A DNA stretch of 29,052 nt from a virus: the IMG/VR virus record IMGVR_UViG_3300023116_000239, positions 1-29,052 of that record; one strand, given 5' to 3'. The position numbers and the translations under genes were made by a program. Under the pieces are notes generated by a model. That model did not search any database and was not told the DNA's origin. It worked only from the letters and a program-made list of their open reading frames with translations. This document shows positions 9,001 through 29,052 of this stretch, one piece after another; position 1 is the stretch's first letter, and every line of letters begins with the position of its first letter.

Positions 9001-12000
9001 GATCAACTCCAATGATGTATAAGAATGGATCTGTTATTGCAGAACTGCCAACACAAGTATTTGCTATTGTTAATAATAACGATAACGAGTTCTCAATATC
9101 AACAACAAAATCAGGAACAGCAGTAACATTTACATCTTTAGGTGAAGGAAATGCTCATCAATTTGCAATGGCAAAGAGAAATGAAAAAACTATTATTACC
9201 CTTGATAATGTTGCACAATACCCAATTACATTCACAAAAATCTCTCAAACATTAAGTGGAAATGGTGGTGGAATCACAACCTCAGCAACAACATTTGCTT
9301 TAAGTGGAATCACAACTATAGTTCCTCTTGATATATTGAAAATAGATGATGAATATATGAAAGTTGTTAATGTTGGATTTGGAACAACAAATATTGGACC
9401 TATTACCAATACAGGAACTGAAAAATTAGTTCAGGTTGAGAGAGGTCACGTAGGATCTTCTGCAACATCACATACTGATTCGACATCGACTAGAATATAC
9501 AAAGGATCTTACAATATTGTTGGAGATAGCATTTTCTTTACAAAAGCACCGAGAGGTAATTCAAGTATTACTAGAGATAGTAGCAACTTAAAGTTTGAAA
9601 CTTCCGACTTTACTGGCAGAGTGTTCCTTAGGAGTGATTACACTACAAACCAAGTTTATGATGATGTTTCTGACCAATTTAGTGGAATTGGTAGAACATT
9701 TACATTAACTGTTGGTGGAGCAAATACTGCTGGTATTGGAACTACTGGTGGAAATGGAGTAGTGTTTATCAATGGAATATTCCAAACTCCAACAACTCAA
9801 AATAATCCATCAAGAAATTTCAGAATTATTGAGCAAACCTCTCCTACAGGAATATCTTCTATCGTATTCAGTGGTATTAGAACAGATATAGCAGATCCAA
9901 ATAGTATTTTGATTTCGGAATCCGATGTAAATCAAAACCAAATTCCTAGAGGTGGTATTATTATTTCTCTTGGATCGACTGGTGGACTTGGGTATGCACC
10001 TCTTGCTGGTGCCGCAGTCACTGCAGTAGTTTCTGCTGGTGTTATTGTTGGATTAAATACTGGAATTACTGGAGGAACCTTTGGATCTGGATACAATGGA
10101 ATTGTATCAATAGGTATCAGTGTTTATGAAAATGGTCATAGTGGAAATGTAGCAGATATTAGTGCTACAGTAGGTGCAGGTGGAACATTGGTGTTCACTA
10201 TCAATGATGGTGGAAGTGGATATAATAATCCAGAAATATTTGTTTCAGAACCTTCATATGAAAACCTTGAAATAACCGGTGTCTCTAGAATAGGTGTGGG
10301 TGCAACAACTGATACTGGAACTGGATTATTGCTTAATGTCAATGTTGGTGCAAGTTCAACAGTAGGTGTTGGATCAACATACTTTGCTGTTAATAGTTTC
10401 TCTATTGCAAGATCTGGATATGCATTCAGAAAAGGTGACGTATTCAAACCAGTTGGATTAGTCACTGCTGCTGGATTAGCATCTCCACTATCTGATTTTG
10501 AAATAACTGTATTGGAGACATTTACTGATAATTTTGGAGCATGGCAGTTTGGAGAACTTGACTTCATTGATTCTATTAAAAACTATCAGGATGGAATAAG
10601 AATCAGATTCCCACTATTCTATAATGGATCAATTCTTAGTTTCGAAAAACCAGAAGATTCTACTATAGATCTTCAAAATGTATTATTAATATTCATCAAT
10701 GGAGTTCTTCAAAGTCCTGGAGATGCATATACTTTTGATGGTGGTACATCATTCGCATTCAGTGTTGCACCAAAACCAAGTGATAATATTGACATTTTCT
10801 TCTATAGAGGGACAAGAGGTTTAGATGATATACAAGTAGAAAATGTTATTCCAACTTTGGAAAGAGGTGATAATGTTCAAGTATTTAAAAATGATACTAT
10901 TTCTGGAACAGTTACTCAAGATCAAAGAACTATTTTTGATGTCTCTTTCTCAGATAAGTTTGAAACAAATTTATATACTGATCAAGGAGTTGATGAAGTC
11001 AATGACAAACCCATGTCATGGACAAAACAAAAAACCGATAGAGTAATTAATGGTGAGTTTGTCTACAAGACGAGACAATCTACAATTTCTCAAGTATATC
11101 CGACTGCAAAAATTATTAAAGATGTTTCAACTTCAGATTCTAGAATTTTTGTTGATGATGTAAGTGATTTCACATATAATCTTGGTGCTGGACCATACAA
11201 TTCATTGAAAGGTATTGTTGTTGATGGCAAAGAAGATCCTTCACCAGCAAATATTACTGCAACTATTGGTGCAGGTGGAACTATCAGTTCTCTTAGTATT
11301 GTTAATGGTGGAAGTGGATACACTGGATCCACTGTTAATGTTAAGTTCCAAAATCCTTTACGTGTTGGTGTTGGATTCGGAACAACTGCCACTGCAACCG
11401 TAACAGTTGGGAGTGGTGGATCTTTAACCACTCCAATCAATATTACAAATCCAGGATTTGGATACACTGTTGCACCAAAAACTATCGTTCCTTTACCTAG
11501 TCCAAATTATGAAAACTTGGGAGGTATTCAAATTGTTTCTGGTTTCTCTGGAATAATAACATCTATTGAAACTACTACAGGAACAGGTGGACATTCATTA
11601 GGAATCAAGTTCTTCCTCGATAGATCTCCAACAGCATTTGGCAATGATTTGAAAGTTGGATATCCAATATTTGTTAAGAACACTAAGGTTGGATCGGGTG
11701 TGACATCAGTTGATAGTTCTGATAGCGCTATAGTTGGCATTGGAACAACATTCTTAGACAATATCTATTATGTTGGTGCAATAACTGTCGATGGGACAGT
11801 AGGAATTGTCACATGCAATATTGATTCCGGAACTAATACGACAGGTCTTTCTACTAGTGGAGATATTGTTGGAGAATTCTCTTGGGGATTGTTTACATCG
11901 ATTACTAGATCATCATCTCCTATTTCTATTGGAGTTACTGGAAAAACTGTTGATGTTGGTTTATCCACATTCCCAACAATTCAAAGAAGGGGTGAGGGTC

Positions 12001-25470: not shown

Positions 25471-26273
25471 TGTTAGGAACCTATTTTTATCACGAGATAA
25501 TAAGAAAAACTATTATTAGTTTTGGAACTTTATTTAACAACATTTCAATTCGACACACTAAAAGTGATGGTAGTGTTTTGGATGAGACTAAGGTTGGTCT
25601 TTCATATGGACCAATGCAAAAATTCTTGACAAAGATTCAAGAGCAAGAGCAGTTATCAAAATCAATTGCAATTACTCTTCCAAGAATGTCATTTGAGATG
25701 ACTAGGATTCAATATGATCCTACTAGAAAAACAGGAGTAACTCAAACATTTAAGGCAAACGATACTACCGACAATAAAACTAAAAAAGTATTCATGCCGG
25801 TTCCTTACAATATTGAGTTTGAACTTAATATCTTTAGTAAGTTGAATGATGATGCCCTTCAGATCATCGAACAAATACTTCCATTCTTTCAACCATCATT
25901 TAACTTAACTGTTGACTTAGTTGAGTCAATCGGAGAGAAAAGAGATATTCCTATTATACTTGATAGTATTGATTTTCAGGATGATTATGAAGGTTCTTTT
26001 GAGACCAGAAGAGCACTCATTTATACTTTAAGATTTACTGCAAAGACTTATCTCTTCGGTCCTATTGCAGACTCTTCTGATGGACTTATTCGTAAGGTTC
26101 AGGCAGATCTTTACAGTGATACAAATACTCAAACTGCAAGACGTGAAATGAGATATACTGTTGTTCCAGATCCAATCAGTGCAGAACCAGGTGATGATTT
26201 TGGATTCACTGAGAATTGGAATTTCTTACCAGATTCTAAAGAGTATAGTCCAACTAGACAAGAGGATATTTGA
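25470..26273 (+). CDS. gp15: gp15, tail terminator / tail completion protein
   Basis: This is a homologue of T4 gp15, which caps the tail tube and sheath and joins the tail to the neck. The match runs over the whole length: YFYHEIIRK near the start (T4 YFYNSSFRRY), LFNNISI, ITLPRMSFEM (T4 ETILPRINLHL), YNIEFELNIFSK, IIEQILPFFQPSFN at about 132-145 (T4 IVEQILPYFQPHFN), KRDIPIIL (T4 KRDIKIVL) and DGLIRK (T4 EGLIRT). The length of 267 residues is close to the 272 of T4. The ATG overlaps the gp14 stop in TAATG, and gp16 starts a few bases after the gp15 stop. Confidence 0.95.
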   Translation: MLGTYFYHEIIRKTIISFGTLFNNISIRHTKSDGSVLDETKVGLSYGPMQKFLTKIQEQEQLSKSIAITLPRMSFEMTRIQYDPTRKTGVTQTFKANDTTDNKTKKVFMPVPYNIEFELNIFSKLNDDALQIIEQILPFFQPSFNLTVDLVESIGEKRDIPIILDSIDFQDDYEGSFETRRALIYTLRFTAKTYLFGPIADSSDGLIRKVQADLYSDTNTQTARREMRYTVVPDPISAEPGDDFGFTENWNFLPDSKEYSPTRQEDI

Positions 26274-26278
26274 TTGTT

Positions 26279-26725
26279 ATGAGTAATAATTATGATTCCA
26301 TCGATGAAGCACTCAATACAACGAGTGAGATTGTTGAGGTAGAACCTGTTAAGAAAAAACCAGAGATTGTAAAATCTAAAGAAGTTGATATTGAGAAAGA
26401 CTATGAATATAGTCGTGCTAATCTCTATTCCCTCATAGAGAAGGGTCAAGAGGCAATTAACGGTATTATGGAGGTAGCAGGTGAAGGAGGCAGTCCAAGG
26501 GCATATGAGGTCGCTGGACAGTTGATTAAGAGTGTTGCGGATACCACTGATAAGTTGATTGACTTACAAAAGAAACTCAAAGATGTGGAAGAGGATTCAA
26601 AGAAAACGATTGGTAATGTGACTAATAATGCAGTCTTTGTTGGGTCAACTTCAGAACTTCAAAAAATGCTGAAACAAGGTTTTCTAAATAGTAATGACTC
26701 AAACACTAAAAATGAAAAGGTGTAA
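26279..26725 (+). CDS. gp16: gp16, small terminase subunit
   Basis: The small terminase subunit recognises DNA for packaging and regulates the gp17 motor. From the ATG at 26279 the protein has 148 residues, against 164 for T4 gp16. It contains DYEYSRANLY (41-50; T4 DYGVVRRNMH), a helical core with GGSPRAYEVAGQLI and TTDKLIDLQKKLKDVEE (T4 NADSPRHMEVFATLM and TTNREILKLHKDMKDI), and NAVFVGSTSEL at 117-127 (T4 NATVFMGSPTEL). An in-frame TTG at 26270 would add three residues and overlap gp15, but the ATG is the likelier start. AGAGGA at 26261-26266 is a possible ribosome-binding site. The next gene overlaps its 3' end in another frame. The large subunit gp17 is not in the window. Confidence 0.93.
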   Translation: MSNNYDSIDEALNTTSEIVEVEPVKKKPEIVKSKEVDIEKDYEYSRANLYSLIEKGQEAINGIMEVAGEGGSPRAYEVAGQLIKSVADTTDKLIDLQKKLKDVEEDSKKTIGNVTNNAVFVGSTSELQKMLKQGFLNSNDSNTKNEKV

Positions 26726-28373
26726 GCAAGGACACTATTATTGTTATAAAGATAAAAAGTGTAAACGAATCCCAACAGGATATCGTGTGGGTCTTGGTGG
26801 TTGGCTCCGCAAAGAAAACGGAGAGGAACAAGAAGATACAAAGAAGAATGGAAATCACTCGAATGGAAATGGGAATGGGAACTCTAATGGGAGTTCTGAT
26901 GGTGGAGGCGTCTCCGAAGGTTGGAGTCAAAAGTATAAAAGGTCTATCGATTGCAATAACCCAAAAGGATTTTCTCAGAGAGCACATTGTCAAGGAAGAA
27001 AGAAGATGAGTGAAGAAAAGAAAGATCACGAATACTCTATGGCAAGATCTGAATTGAAAACCGTTACTAATGCTGCCAAACGTCTTCAAAAGAAGATGGG
27101 TAAAAAAGGTGAGGGTAATCTGCAAGCATGGGTTCAATCAAAAATTACCAAAGCAGCAGATTATATTGATACCGCAGCAGATTATGTAACCAACGAAGAG
27201 ACTGTCAAAGAAGAGGGACTTCGTGATTGGTTTGGTAAATCCAAGTCAAAAGATGGCAAAAGTGGTTGGGTTAATGTTGTTACAGGTGGAACCTGTGCAA
27301 GTGATGAACCTGGTGAAGGAACACCAAAGTGCGTTTCTTCAGCAAAAAGAGCAAGTATGAGTAAGGCAGAGAGACTTTCTGCTCAAAGAAGAAAAAAGGC
27401 AGCAGATCCGGGACAGCAACAAAAATCTGGTGCTGCAAAACCAACTTACGTTTCTACAGACCCAAAGAAAAAAATGAAGAAAGAAGAAGTAGAAGTAACA
27501 GAGGCAAAAGACAAACCAGGTAAAGGTAGTGGTAAAAAGGATGCCTGTTATCATAAAGTAAAGTCACGTTATTCCGTTTGGCCTTCTGCATATGCCTCTG
27601 GAGCACTTGTGAAGTGCCGTAAGGTTGGTGCTGATAACTGGGGAAATAAGTCCGAGAGTTACGATTTCTCAAACTGGAGAGAAGATTTCAAGGCAACTGA
27701 ATATGAGTTTGTTGATCTTATCAAACCAGAACCACTAAAAGGTGAACAGATTGATGAAGGTCAAAAGTGTTGGAAGGGATATGAGAAAAAGGGAACTAAA
27801 AAAATGTTTGGTAAGACCTATAATAACTGTGTGAAGAAAGAGGAAAATGAAATTAATGAGGCAAAGCACACACCAACAAAATCTGATTTAGAATCAAAAA
27901 TTGGTGGAGGTAATCTCAAGAAACTTTCAAAAAAAGCATCAACAAGAATTGATTATGATGTTGATGGTGATGTAGATCCCAATGACAAAGTTGAAAAGAA
28001 AACTGGAGAATATGGAGAACAACTTCCAACTCCATTTGGTAAGTTTAGAACTGGAGATTCTAAAAAAGTAAAAGTTAAAAAAGAAGAGTTTTCTGATTGG
28101 AGAGTAGAACTTGATGAGGATTGGCAAAAGGTCAATAAATCCGATAAGACTGATGGTATGAGTCCTGCAGCAGTTAAGGCATATCGTCGTGAGAATCCTG
28201 GTTCTAAGTTGAAGACTGCCGTAACTGGTGATCCAAAACCAGGAAGTAAAGATGCCAAACGCAGAAAGTCTTTCTGTGCAAGATCTAAGGGTCAACAAGA
28301 TATGCATAACATTGATTGCTCCAAGACCCCAGACAAACCCGTTTGCAAAGCCCGTCGTCGCTGGAAGTGCTGA
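26694..28373 (+). CDS. Modular Lys- and Cys-rich protein, candidate capsid core or internal polyprotein
   Basis: The frame opens at ATG 26694 (559 residues), but a second ATG at 26712, where the sequence begins MKRCKQG, is equally plausible and overlaps gp16 less. Numbered from the first ATG, several Cys modules are strung along a basic chain: CKQGHYYCYKDKKC (10-23), CNNPKGFSQRAHC (87-99), C201-C213, C285-C308 with WPSAYASGALVKC, CWKGYEKKGTKK to C379, and a C-terminal module with KRRKSFCARS ending RRRWKC. A helical segment with MARSELKTVTNAAKRLQKK lies at about 116-134. The C201 and C-terminal modules resemble small conserved families (DUF6321-like) that recur in marine phages. An Asn/Gly-rich linker lies at 52-72. 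Putative prohead-protease sites separate the modules. I infer a head-core or packaged role. The function is unproven, and zinc or DNA binding is possible. Confidence 0.75.
   Translation: MTQTLKMKRCKQGHYYCYKDKKCKRIPTGYRVGLGGWLRKENGEEQEDTKKNGNHSNGNGNGNSNGSSDGGGVSEGWSQKYKRSIDCNNPKGFSQRAHCQGRKKMSEEKKDHEYSMARSELKTVTNAAKRLQKKMGKKGEGNLQAWVQSKITKAADYIDTAADYVTNEETVKEEGLRDWFGKSKSKDGKSGWVNVVTGGTCASDEPGEGTPKCVSSAKRASMSKAERLSAQRRKKAADPGQQQKSGAAKPTYVSTDPKKKMKKEEVEVTEAKDKPGKGSGKKDACYHKVKSRYSVWPSAYASGALVKCRKVGADNWGNKSESYDFSNWREDFKATEYEFVDLIKPEPLKGEQIDEGQKCWKGYEKKGTKKMFGKTYNNCVKKEENEINEAKHTPTKSDLESKIGGGNLKKLSKKASTRIDYDVDGDVDPNDKVEKKTGEYGEQLPTPFGKFRTGDSKKVKVKKEEFSDWRVELDEDWQKVNKSDKTDGMSPAAVKAYRRENPGSKLKTAVTGDPKPGSKDAKRRKSFCARSKGQQDMHNIDCSKTPDKPVCKARRRWKC
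27495..28121 (+). other. Set of putative prohead-protease cleavage sites within the modular protein
   Basis: Four sites of the T4 gp21 type (hydrophobic-x-Glu, then a cut) lie between modules: VTE|A at 27495-27506, IDE|G at 27750-27761, INE|A at 27852-27863 and LDE|D at 28110-28121. IDE|G and INE|A fit the T4 rule (Leu or Ile, any residue, Glu, then usually a small residue) best. VTE|A and LDE|D are weaker. Such motifs can occur by chance in an acidic and basic protein, so it is their placement at module borders that gives support. Confidence 0.4.
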
Positions 28374-28376
28374 TCA

Positions 28377-28406
28377 ATGAAAAGTTTTCAACAATTTCTC
28401 TCAGAA
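28377..28406 (+). other. Putative capsid-targeting sequence ending in an L-S-E protease site
   Basis: Residues 1-10 share M-K, an aromatic at position 4 (F for Y), Q5, F7, a hydrophobic residue at 8 and E10 with the T4 internal protein leader. The last three residues, L-S-E, fit the gp21 rule for cleavage after Glu, and Ser follows. Confidence 0.6.
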
Positions 28407-28685
28407 AGTATCACCATCAATGGTGACTTCAATGGAACCCTCAACGTAGGGGGTTCTCAACCAGAACCTGCACAAGAGTCTTTCTTTGCTGATGTTATGT
28501 GGGAAGGTAAACTTTACCGTTTAGAAGTAGAAGGCAAGATGCTTTCTAAGAACGAACTTGCAGAACAAATTCAAGATGAATATCCTGGAGCAATTGTTCA
28601 TCAGATTTATCCTGGTCAGGTAAATACTTCAAGAATCAAAAACGCACAGAGATATCAACCAGAAAGATTATCGTGGAGTGATTAA
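28377..28685 (+). CDS. 102-residue candidate internal head protein with a capsid-targeting leader
   Basis: The protein starts MKSFQQFLSE, very like the ten-residue capsid-targeting sequence of T4 internal proteins (for example MKTYQEFIAE), which ends in a gp21 protease site. The predicted cut after Glu10 would release a mature protein of 92 residues. The mature part has a short beta segment (TINGDFNGTLNVGG), a Pro/Glu/Gln linker and a compact C-terminal domain with WEGKLYRLEVEG, a helix NELAEQIQDEYPGAI and VHQIYPGQ. No enzyme motif or Cys is visible. The start lies 3 bases after the preceding stop, with GGAAG about 10 bases upstream as a possible ribosome-binding site. The stop overlaps the next start in TAATG. 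Packaging in the head is inferred from the leader. What the protein does there is unknown. Confidence 0.75.
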   Translation: MKSFQQFLSESITINGDFNGTLNVGGSQPEPAQESFFADVMWEGKLYRLEVEGKMLSKNELAEQIQDEYPGAIVHQIYPGQVNTSRIKNAQRYQPERLSWSD

Positions 28686-29052
28686 TGGCACAGTGGAATA
28701 AAAATACACAAGACTTTCTAAATCAAGAAAGAACACTTTTTGAAGTTCCTTTGATAGCAACAAGGGATGGAAATGTTGTTGATAATCTCAATAGATTTCC
28801 AGTAAGTGTAAATCCTGATGCTTTTGGGAGAACTAGAATATCTCAACCACTTACACTATTTGATAGTTCTCACAGATATAGAGATAATAATCTTTGGGAA
28901 AGTTTGATTGTAGGCACTGGTTCTGCGGTTGGATTTGTAACAACTCAAGGATTAGTCAATATTGGTATTGGAACTACTGCTGGTTGTTCAGTAATTAGAG
29001 AAACTACTAAGACATTCTCATATCAACCAGGAAAATCTTTGCTTGTGTTGAA
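28685..29052 (+). CDS. N-terminal part of a virion structural protein, truncated by the window end
   Basis: The ATG overlaps the preceding stop in TAATG, and the frame stays open to the right edge (122 complete codons). Early blocks are NTQDFLNQERTLFEVPLIATR, then FGRTRISQPLTLFDSSHRYRDNN and TKTFSYQPGKSLLVL. The FGR-R-S-P-TLFDS-RY pattern and the following SYQPGKS block are typical of conserved structural proteins of marine T4-like phages. One IGIGTT motif, frequent in the giant protein, occurs near residue 99. It is probably a tail or fiber-related virion protein. It is not gp17, the gene expected after gp16. Confidence 0.75.
   Translation, partial: MAQWNKNTQDFLNQERTLFEVPLIATRDGNVVDNLNRFPVSVNPDAFGRTRISQPLTLFDSSHRYRDNNLWESLIVGTGSAVGFVTTQGLVNIGIGTTAGCSVIRETTKTFSYQPGKSLLVL

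What the first reader, a model, noticed from the sequence alone, without database searches (positions are those of the whole stretch)
28377..28685. Capsid-targeting leader on a small unknown protein: candidate protein injected with the DNA
MKSFQQFLSE resembles the T4 internal-protein leader MKTYQEFIAE at most positions and ends in a protease site. In T4, proteins with this leader are packed in the head, trimmed by gp21 and delivered into the host, where some block host defences. The 92-residue mature domain is not one I recognise, so it may be an unstudied early effector of a marine phage.
Basis: partly seen in the sequence, partly recalled or inferred. Interest (0 to 1): 0.85.

Follow-up and report, generated by a model that had tools for sequence, protein, structure and literature searches.

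The report
Head-targeted small protein of cyanophages
A small, uncharacterised protein of viruses that infect marine cyanobacteria starts with the same kind of short 'address label' that phage T4 uses to load proteins into its head, so it is probably loaded there too, but nothing yet shows that it is injected or attacks the host.

Summary
The ORF is real (28377-28685, 102 aa; phrog_1742, unknown function). It is a syntenic gene of T4-like cyanophages, usually just before a virion-protein gene. Its leader MKSFQQFLSE|S has the four positions that matter in the T4 capsid-targeting sequence: aromatic 4 and 7 for targeting, 8 and Glu10 for cutting. All four hold in 185 of 185 distinct long homologues. 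The spacing is specific: 32 matches in 16 genomes against 1 and 2 for spacing-shifted controls. The same kind of leader sits on cyanophage NMNAT-like enzymes, a family that mass spectrometry has found in virions. The mature part holds a beta-beta-alpha-beta 'YPG' module, which also occurs inside the neighbouring Lys/Cys-rich protein family, usually behind a prohead-protease-like site. This supports head targeting and processing.

The 'injected effector' half is not supported. In two virion proteomes neighbours are listed or flagged, the homologue is not. The mature domain is conserved and sits among structural genes, unlike T4's non-homologous IPs, and it is acidic. Best reading: a low-copy or transient, protease-processed head-interior protein. 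Speculative: the module's closest solved fold is T7 Gp2, an RNA-polymerase inhibitor, but homology and its key arginines are absent.

The parts
28377..28406 (+). Capsid-targeting-like leader, residues 1-10, MKSFQQFLSE
   Evidence: positions 4 [FY], 7 F, 8 [LIM], 10 E hold in 185 of 185 distinct long homologues (rows picked with a leader pattern) and in 128 of 128 picked by profile
28404..28409 (+). Predicted prohead-protease cut, Glu10|Ser11 (LSE|S)
   Evidence: Ser11 in 184 of 185 and Glu10 in 185 of 185; the cut itself is inferred from T4
28407..28475 (+). Residues 11-33, predicted disordered linker with conserved S[IV]xIxGDFNGxLxV
   Evidence: Conservation; pLDDT under 50 over most of it in the model
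28476..28625 (+). Residues 34-83, beta-beta-alpha-beta 'YPG' module
   Evidence: AlphaFold2 model, pLDDT blocks 74-87 over residues 31-80; recurs in other cyanophage proteins
28377..28685 (+). Whole gene, 102 aa, phrog_1742
26694..28373 (+). Upstream 559-aa modular Lys/Cys-rich ORF (DUF6321 at its C-terminus); relative SSCSM1_29 is flagged as a virion protein; four [LIVM]xE|[AGS] sites after residues 75, 270, 355, 389; no YPG module found in this copy
   Evidence: (4 sites against 1.16 expected by shuffling)
28685..29052 (+). Downstream gene (cut by the window end), virion structural protein family phrog_1645
   Evidence: 251 of 277 homologue loci with enough sequence have a start like MA[QIV][WF] there
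26270..26725 (+). Terminase small subunit (gp16-like), marks the structural gene block
   Evidence: phrog_445, E 2e-58

Best explanation
The gene encodes a head-interior (prohead core) protein of T4-like cyanophages. Its first ten residues form a short amphipathic helix that docks it into the scaffold core, as the T4 capsid-targeting sequence does. The gp21-like protease then cuts after Glu10. The mature 92-residue part is a flexible strand plus a small beta-beta-alpha-beta module. It most likely serves as a low-copy or transient structural or core component. It works with the neighbouring Lys/Cys-rich protein, whose relatives often carry the same module behind a protease-like site. Shown: leader, conservation, specificity, synteny, module sharing, predicted fold. 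Inferred: docking, cutting, location, structural role.
For: Leader spacing is specific: 32 matches in 16 genomes against 1 and 2 for shifted spacings and 1 for the reversed pattern. T4 mutants place targeting at residues 4 and 7 and processing at 8 and 10 (passages of PMC9026906); those positions hold in 128 of 128 and 185 of 185 distinct homologues, with synonymous codon change. NMNAT-like enzymes have such a leader in 47 of 48 IMG/VR loci, the exception cut by a contig end (of 49 loci fetched, one held only the C-terminus). NMNAT or cytidylyltransferase proteins are in virions of S-SCSM1, S-SZBM1 and S-SM1. Embedded YPG modules have [LIM]xE[AGS] just upstream in 22 of 28 non-redundant contexts against 4.7% of same-size windows. 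K[ST][FY]xxF[LIVM]xE occurs inside 134 Lys/Cys-rich ORFs 6 times against 0.02 by shuffling; one of the six may be an N-terminal leader. Fixed place beside structural genes. Relatives carry head maturation protease and scaffold genes.
Against: The homologue is missing from two virion proteomes in which its neighbours are listed or flagged. In S-SZBM1 it should give six tryptic peptides of 7-30 residues, so it is probably not abundant there. No N-terminal peptide data show the cut. The mature protein is acidic (-5), whereas T4 IPs are described as basic. The S-CAM9 NMNAT has a different N-terminus, and the S-SZBM1 NMNAT leader is one residue shorter.
Confidence: 0.55

Rival explanations
1. One reading: the mature protein is packed, injected with the DNA and blocks a host defence or process, as T4 IPI-IPIII do.
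For: Same leader chemistry as T4 internal proteins; NMNAT-like enzymes with such a leader belong to a virion-borne family.
Against: Not seen in two virion proteomes; conserved, syntenic, among structural genes instead of an accessory, variable gene; module shared with a virion-flagged protein family. T4 Ips share only the leader (passages).
Confidence: 0.18
2. Prohead-only core component: targeted and cut like T4 gp67/gp68, then expelled or digested, so it is absent from mature virions. This overlaps with the best explanation and differs in the fate.
For: Non-detection in two virion proteomes; second nearly invariant Glu (E34) before the module; leader conserved.
Against: E34 lacks the hydrophobic residue expected two before it in many homologues; no prohead data exist here.
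Confidence: 0.25
3. Assembly partner or chaperone of the downstream virion protein; the leader is a binding peptide for that protein and is not cut.
For: Coupling to a gene starting MA[QIV][WF] in 251 of 277 loci.
Against: In S-SCSM1 the downstream virion protein has no significant match to the usual one (best E 0.08) while this gene stays; such leaders also sit on unlinked NMNAT genes.
Confidence: 0.12
4. Gp2-like RNA-polymerase-binding protein delivered with the DNA, an analogue of T4 Alt.
For: T7 Gp2 is the top PDB match in Foldseek for one model (rank 4 for the other) and in VIA-align for both: Z 4.7 then 5.5, 49 residues, rmsd 2.3 and 2.1. RNAP epsilon YkzG also appears.
Against: E-values 0.1-0.5 and Z under 8; profile-profile comparison shows no homology (0.3% and 0.2%); Gp2's invariant R56 and R58, needed to bind RNAP (passages), align by eye with Q76 and Y78.
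Confidence: 0.05

Closest known systems
T4 internal proteins IPI, IPII, IPIII with capsid-targeting sequence
   Same: Leader with aromatic 4 and 7, and (IPII, IPIII) hydrophobic 8 and Glu10; small size; T4-like phages with protease and scaffold genes
   Different: No homology seen beyond the leader; mature part acidic and conserved; not detected in two virion proteomes; sits in the gp16-gp17 gene block
Cyanophage NMNAT-like cytidylyltransferase (T4-GC190, phrog_395)
   Same: Same kind of leader; T4-like cyanophages
   Different: An enzyme of about 360-430 aa, family seen in virions by mass spectrometry; encoded elsewhere in the genome
DUF6321 / gp114-like Lys/Cys-rich cyanophage proteins (phrog_727, phrog_3477, phrog_10346)
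   Same: Adjacent gene; the YPG module lies inside longer proteins, mostly of this kind, in 67 hits
   Different: Long, multi-module; the module mostly follows an internal protease-like site in place of an N-terminal leader
T7 Gp2 fold (RNA polymerase inhibitor)
   Same: Predicted beta-beta-alpha-beta fold, closest solved match
   Different: No profile homology, RNAP-binding arginines absent, T7 Gp2 has no leader of this kind

Membership tests
T4-type capsid-targeted internal head proteins | N-terminal CTS with residues 4, 7 (targeting) and 8, 10 (processing) | tested here: met
   185 of 185 distinct long homologues, 128 of 128; T4 mutational data from passages of PMC9026906
T4-type capsid-targeted internal head proteins | CTS removed by the prohead protease | not testable with these tools
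   Site LSE|S present; no peptide data
T4-type capsid-targeted internal head proteins | Present inside the mature head | tested here: inconclusive
   Homologues not flagged in the S-SCSM1 record and not in the S-SZBM1 table; detection limits differ, and no data for this phage
T4-type capsid-targeted internal head proteins | Ejected into the host | not testable with these tools
   None
T4-type capsid-targeted internal head proteins | Phage has gp21-like protease and gp22-like scaffold | tested here: met
   Annotated in relatives S-CAM9 and S-SCSM1; outside this window
phrog_1742 (cyanophage, unknown function) | Full-length profile match | tested here: met
   E 9e-41, residues 1-101 on profile 1-106 of 108
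T7 Gp2 RNA polymerase inhibitors | Sequence homology to the Gp2 family | tested here: not met
   hhalign probability 0.3% and 0.2%
T7 Gp2 RNA polymerase inhibitors | Arg56 and Arg58 that bind the beta' jaw | tested here: not met
   Invariant in 13 Gp2 sequences; Q76 and Y78 at the matching strand here, placed by eye
T7 Gp2 RNA polymerase inhibitors | Beta-beta-alpha-beta fold | tested here: inconclusive
   Top VIA-align rows for two models but Z at most 5.5

The most novel reading that the evidence does not exclude
T4-like cyanophages load their heads through one shared address code. Small modules either carry their own CTS leader or are strung together in a Lys/Cys-rich polyprotein that the prohead protease cuts apart. 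The cargo is delivered to the host as a takeover kit: an NAD-making enzyme and this Gp2-fold module, perhaps acting on transcription as T4 Alt does.
Probability: 0.1. Interest if true: 0.85.

Novelty: new variant of a known kind. Interest (0 to 1): 0.55.

Why it matters
Capsid targeting by a ten-residue leader is known from T4. My paper searches found no report of it for cyanophages. A leader that can be scored against controls gives a short list of head-targeted proteins per genome, including an NMNAT-like enzyme from a virion-borne family, whose route into the virion had no explanation in the passages I read. It makes 'what do cyanophages carry in their heads, and how is it sorted?' directly testable by N-terminal peptide mass spectrometry.

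Tried and rejected
Leader as chance resemblance: rejected. Homology of the module to Gp2: rejected by profile comparison. Phycobilisome CpcD-like linker: considered because phycobilisome chains appear among weak fold matches; CpcD was not among the nine Pfam families that any of 34 modules touched, all weak (best E 0.056), so no support. Relatives in plasmids: none. PDB sequence search: only weak matches, best E 0.066 and 0.11. Late-promoter-like ATAAATA: no copy near this gene, 3 in the window against 14 expected. Leaderless stand-alone homologues: of the four hits without the leader pattern, one has a single inserted residue and three are pieces that start at a locus edge (the last of these belongs to a Lys/Cys-rich protein). 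A loose internal CTS-like pattern was not clearly enriched (7 against 4.25); only the strict one was. A first count of sites before embedded modules (24 of 31 after I dropped six rows) held near-duplicates in shifted register, so I replaced it by 22 of 28. The S-CREM1 (14 virion proteins) and S-SM1 (41) lists are in supplements that I could not open.

Full report
WHAT IS THERE. The ORF at 28377-28685 (+) is real: 102 aa, ATG, starting three bases after the stop of a 559-aa ORF and overlapping by one base the next gene, a virion structural protein. The window is part of a T4-like cyanophage structural block: baseplate wedge, head-tail adaptor (gp13-like), head closure (gp14-like), tail sheath stabilizer (gp15-like), small terminase (gp16-like), then this trio (gp numbers recalled from T4). 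The protein matches phrog_1742, unknown function, over its full length (E 9e-41) and no Pfam or NCBIfam model at E up to 1. Of 50,697 phage records 135 have a match at E 0.01, all named Synechococcus, Prochlorococcus or Cyanophage.

IS THE LEADER MORE THAN CHANCE? Yes. The DNA pattern for MKx[FY]xx[FY][LIVMF]xE occurs once in the window, at this start, with 0.02 expected. In six genomes a strict protein pattern at 9,381 ATG starts gave 11 hits against 0.37 expected from residue shuffles, maximum 3 in 200 shuffles; a looser pattern gave 16 against 3.3. In 16 genomes (15 cyanophages and T4) the DNA pattern gave 32 matches; two spacing-shifted patterns gave 1 and 2, and the reversed pattern 1. 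One of the two shifted hits is itself the start of an NMNAT, MKSLFQFLSE. Fourteen of the 15 cyanophages were picked because they carry this gene, so the 13 matches at it are expected (the fourteenth has MRSFKQFMSE). The other 19 are 10 NMNAT-like enzymes, T4 IPII, IPIII and 61.1, and six further genes.

CONSERVATION. In 128 distinct homologues chosen by profile, positions 4 ([FY]), 7 (F) and 10 (E) hold in 128 of 128 and position 8 is L, I or M. With further scans the number is 185 of 185 long homologues, chosen with a leader pattern. Positions 3, 5, 6 and 9 vary. Codons vary synonymously, so selection acts on the protein. In T4, mutants placed targeting at residues 4 and 7 and processing at 8 and 10 (passages of PMC9026906). 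The fit is position by position. The IMG/VR scans for this gene used the leader as one of several search seeds, so those counts lean towards the leader. The NMNAT scan did not use it and still gave such a leader in 47 of 48 loci, by a somewhat looser pattern; the exception is cut by a contig end, and the 49th locus held only the C-terminus. No complete stand-alone homologue among the fetched loci lacks the leader. Against this, the S-CAM9 NMNAT has another N-terminus.

OTHER CARRIERS. NMNAT or cytidylyltransferase proteins are in the virion proteomes of S-SCSM1 and S-SZBM1 (passages of PMC9602691 and PMC9146016) and S-SM1 (section 26 of PMC3037559). The S-SCSM1 and S-SZBM1 proteins start MKSFLQFLKEA and, one residue shorter, MRFRQFIIEA; the S-SM1 start was not looked at. 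The authors of the S-SCSM1 and S-CREM2 papers note that such enzymes may be carry-over from the lysate (passages).

IS THIS PROTEIN IN VIRIONS? Not shown. In S-SCSM1 the GenBank record flags 48 CDS as virion proteins (my count over; the paper says 45, and that the flags are the mass-spectrometry list is my inference). SSCSM1_29 and _31 are flagged, the homologue SSCSM1_30 is not. In S-SZBM1 the homologue is PP650_gp085, which is S-SZBM1_191 if the numbers run in reverse (checked by size or name on gp079, gp080, gp081 and gp086). It is not among the 30 proteins of Table 1, while _190 and the 87-aa _195 are. SSCSM1_30 offers only 2 tryptic peptides of 7-30 residues, but S-SZBM1_191 offers 6. So it is probably not as abundant as T4 IPs (about 360 copies each); low copy, or loss at maturation, remains possible.

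THE MATURE PART. AlphaFold2 on 60 sequences gives a helix at 4-8, low confidence over residues 5-31 and a beta-beta-alpha-beta module at 35-79 (mean pLDDT 66 overall, about 85 in the module). A profile of the module finds it in three settings: this gene; an 82-aa leader-plus-module protein (L229 and IMG/VR relatives); and, in 67 hits, inside longer proteins, mostly of the neighbouring Lys/Cys-rich family, one of which (SSCSM1_29) is virion-flagged. The window's own 559-aa ORF gave no module hit. Of 28 non-redundant embedded contexts, 22 have [LIM]xE[AGS] within about 20 residues upstream, against 4.7% of same-size windows in the same ORFs (which replaces the less strict count). The DUF6321 'AAW' domain shows the same habit: 20 of 31 contexts have [LIVM]xE[AGS] upstream (no background computed), and two stand-alone forms carry the leader (S-CREM1 138886 and S-SZBM1 123125). 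Leader-like peptides K[ST][FY]xxF[LIVM]xE occur inside 134 such ORFs 6 times against 0.02 by shuffling. One of the six follows a Met near the ORF start and may be a true leader, and two are near-copies. I infer a modular head-protein set that is sorted by leader or by polyprotein and trimmed by the prohead protease. No peptide data test this.

FUNCTION. Fixed synteny (a MA[QIV][WF] start follows in 251 of 277 loci), a conserved mature part and module sharing point to a core or structural role rather than an arms-race effector. T4 Ip1-3 share nothing but the leader and block GmrSD variants (passages of PMC12373910). The mature part is acidic (-5; family mean -4.4 over 185); after residue 10, T4 IPI, IPII and IPIII are +1, +5 and +10. 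For a second model of the module (67 aa, pLDDT 78), as for the first, T7 Gp2 is the best VIA-align match (Z 4.7 and 5.5). Profile comparison denies homology, and the arginines that bind RNA polymerase (passages of PMC3778932) are not there. I keep this as a speculative reading only.

NOVELTY. 'cyanophage' with 'capsid targeting' found one paper, the T4 review. DUF6321, PF19846, phrog1742 and T4-GC1019 found none. The listings (20 of 24 shown; 8 of 8; 10 of 27; 10 of 20) show no title reporting capsid targeting in cyanophages. Only open-licence PMC papers were searched.

Noticed in passing
L091:38819-40045 (S-SCSM1) and L372-L419: Cyanophage NMNAT-like cytidylyltransferases carry a CTS-like leader in 47 of 48 IMG/VR loci, and the family is reported in virions of several phages: a candidate head-delivered NAD-metabolism enzyme.
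   Followed up: partly
window 26694-28373: The 559-aa Lys/Cys-rich ORF looks like a string of small domains with protease-like sites between them (4 against 1.16 expected): a candidate prohead-protease polyprotein.
   Followed up: partly
L087, T4 19130 (-), gene 61.1: T4 gp61.1 (54 aa, unknown) starts MKTFKEFIKED, a CTS-like leader.
   Followed up: no
L251:146-415, L252:1768-2538 (-), L255:294-1529 (phage DSL-LC03): Three more leader-bearing genes in one genome: an NMNAT C-terminal domain alone (90 aa), and 257-aa and 412-aa proteins without PHROG matches.
   Followed up: partly
L229:1501-1746 and L352-L359: An 82-aa protein made of leader plus the YPG module without the GDFNG linker, a second stand-alone form.
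   Followed up: partly
L093:989-1252 (S-SZBM1 gp081): An 87-aa protein next to the small terminase has the third highest emPAI of the S-SZBM1 virion table and no function.
   Followed up: no
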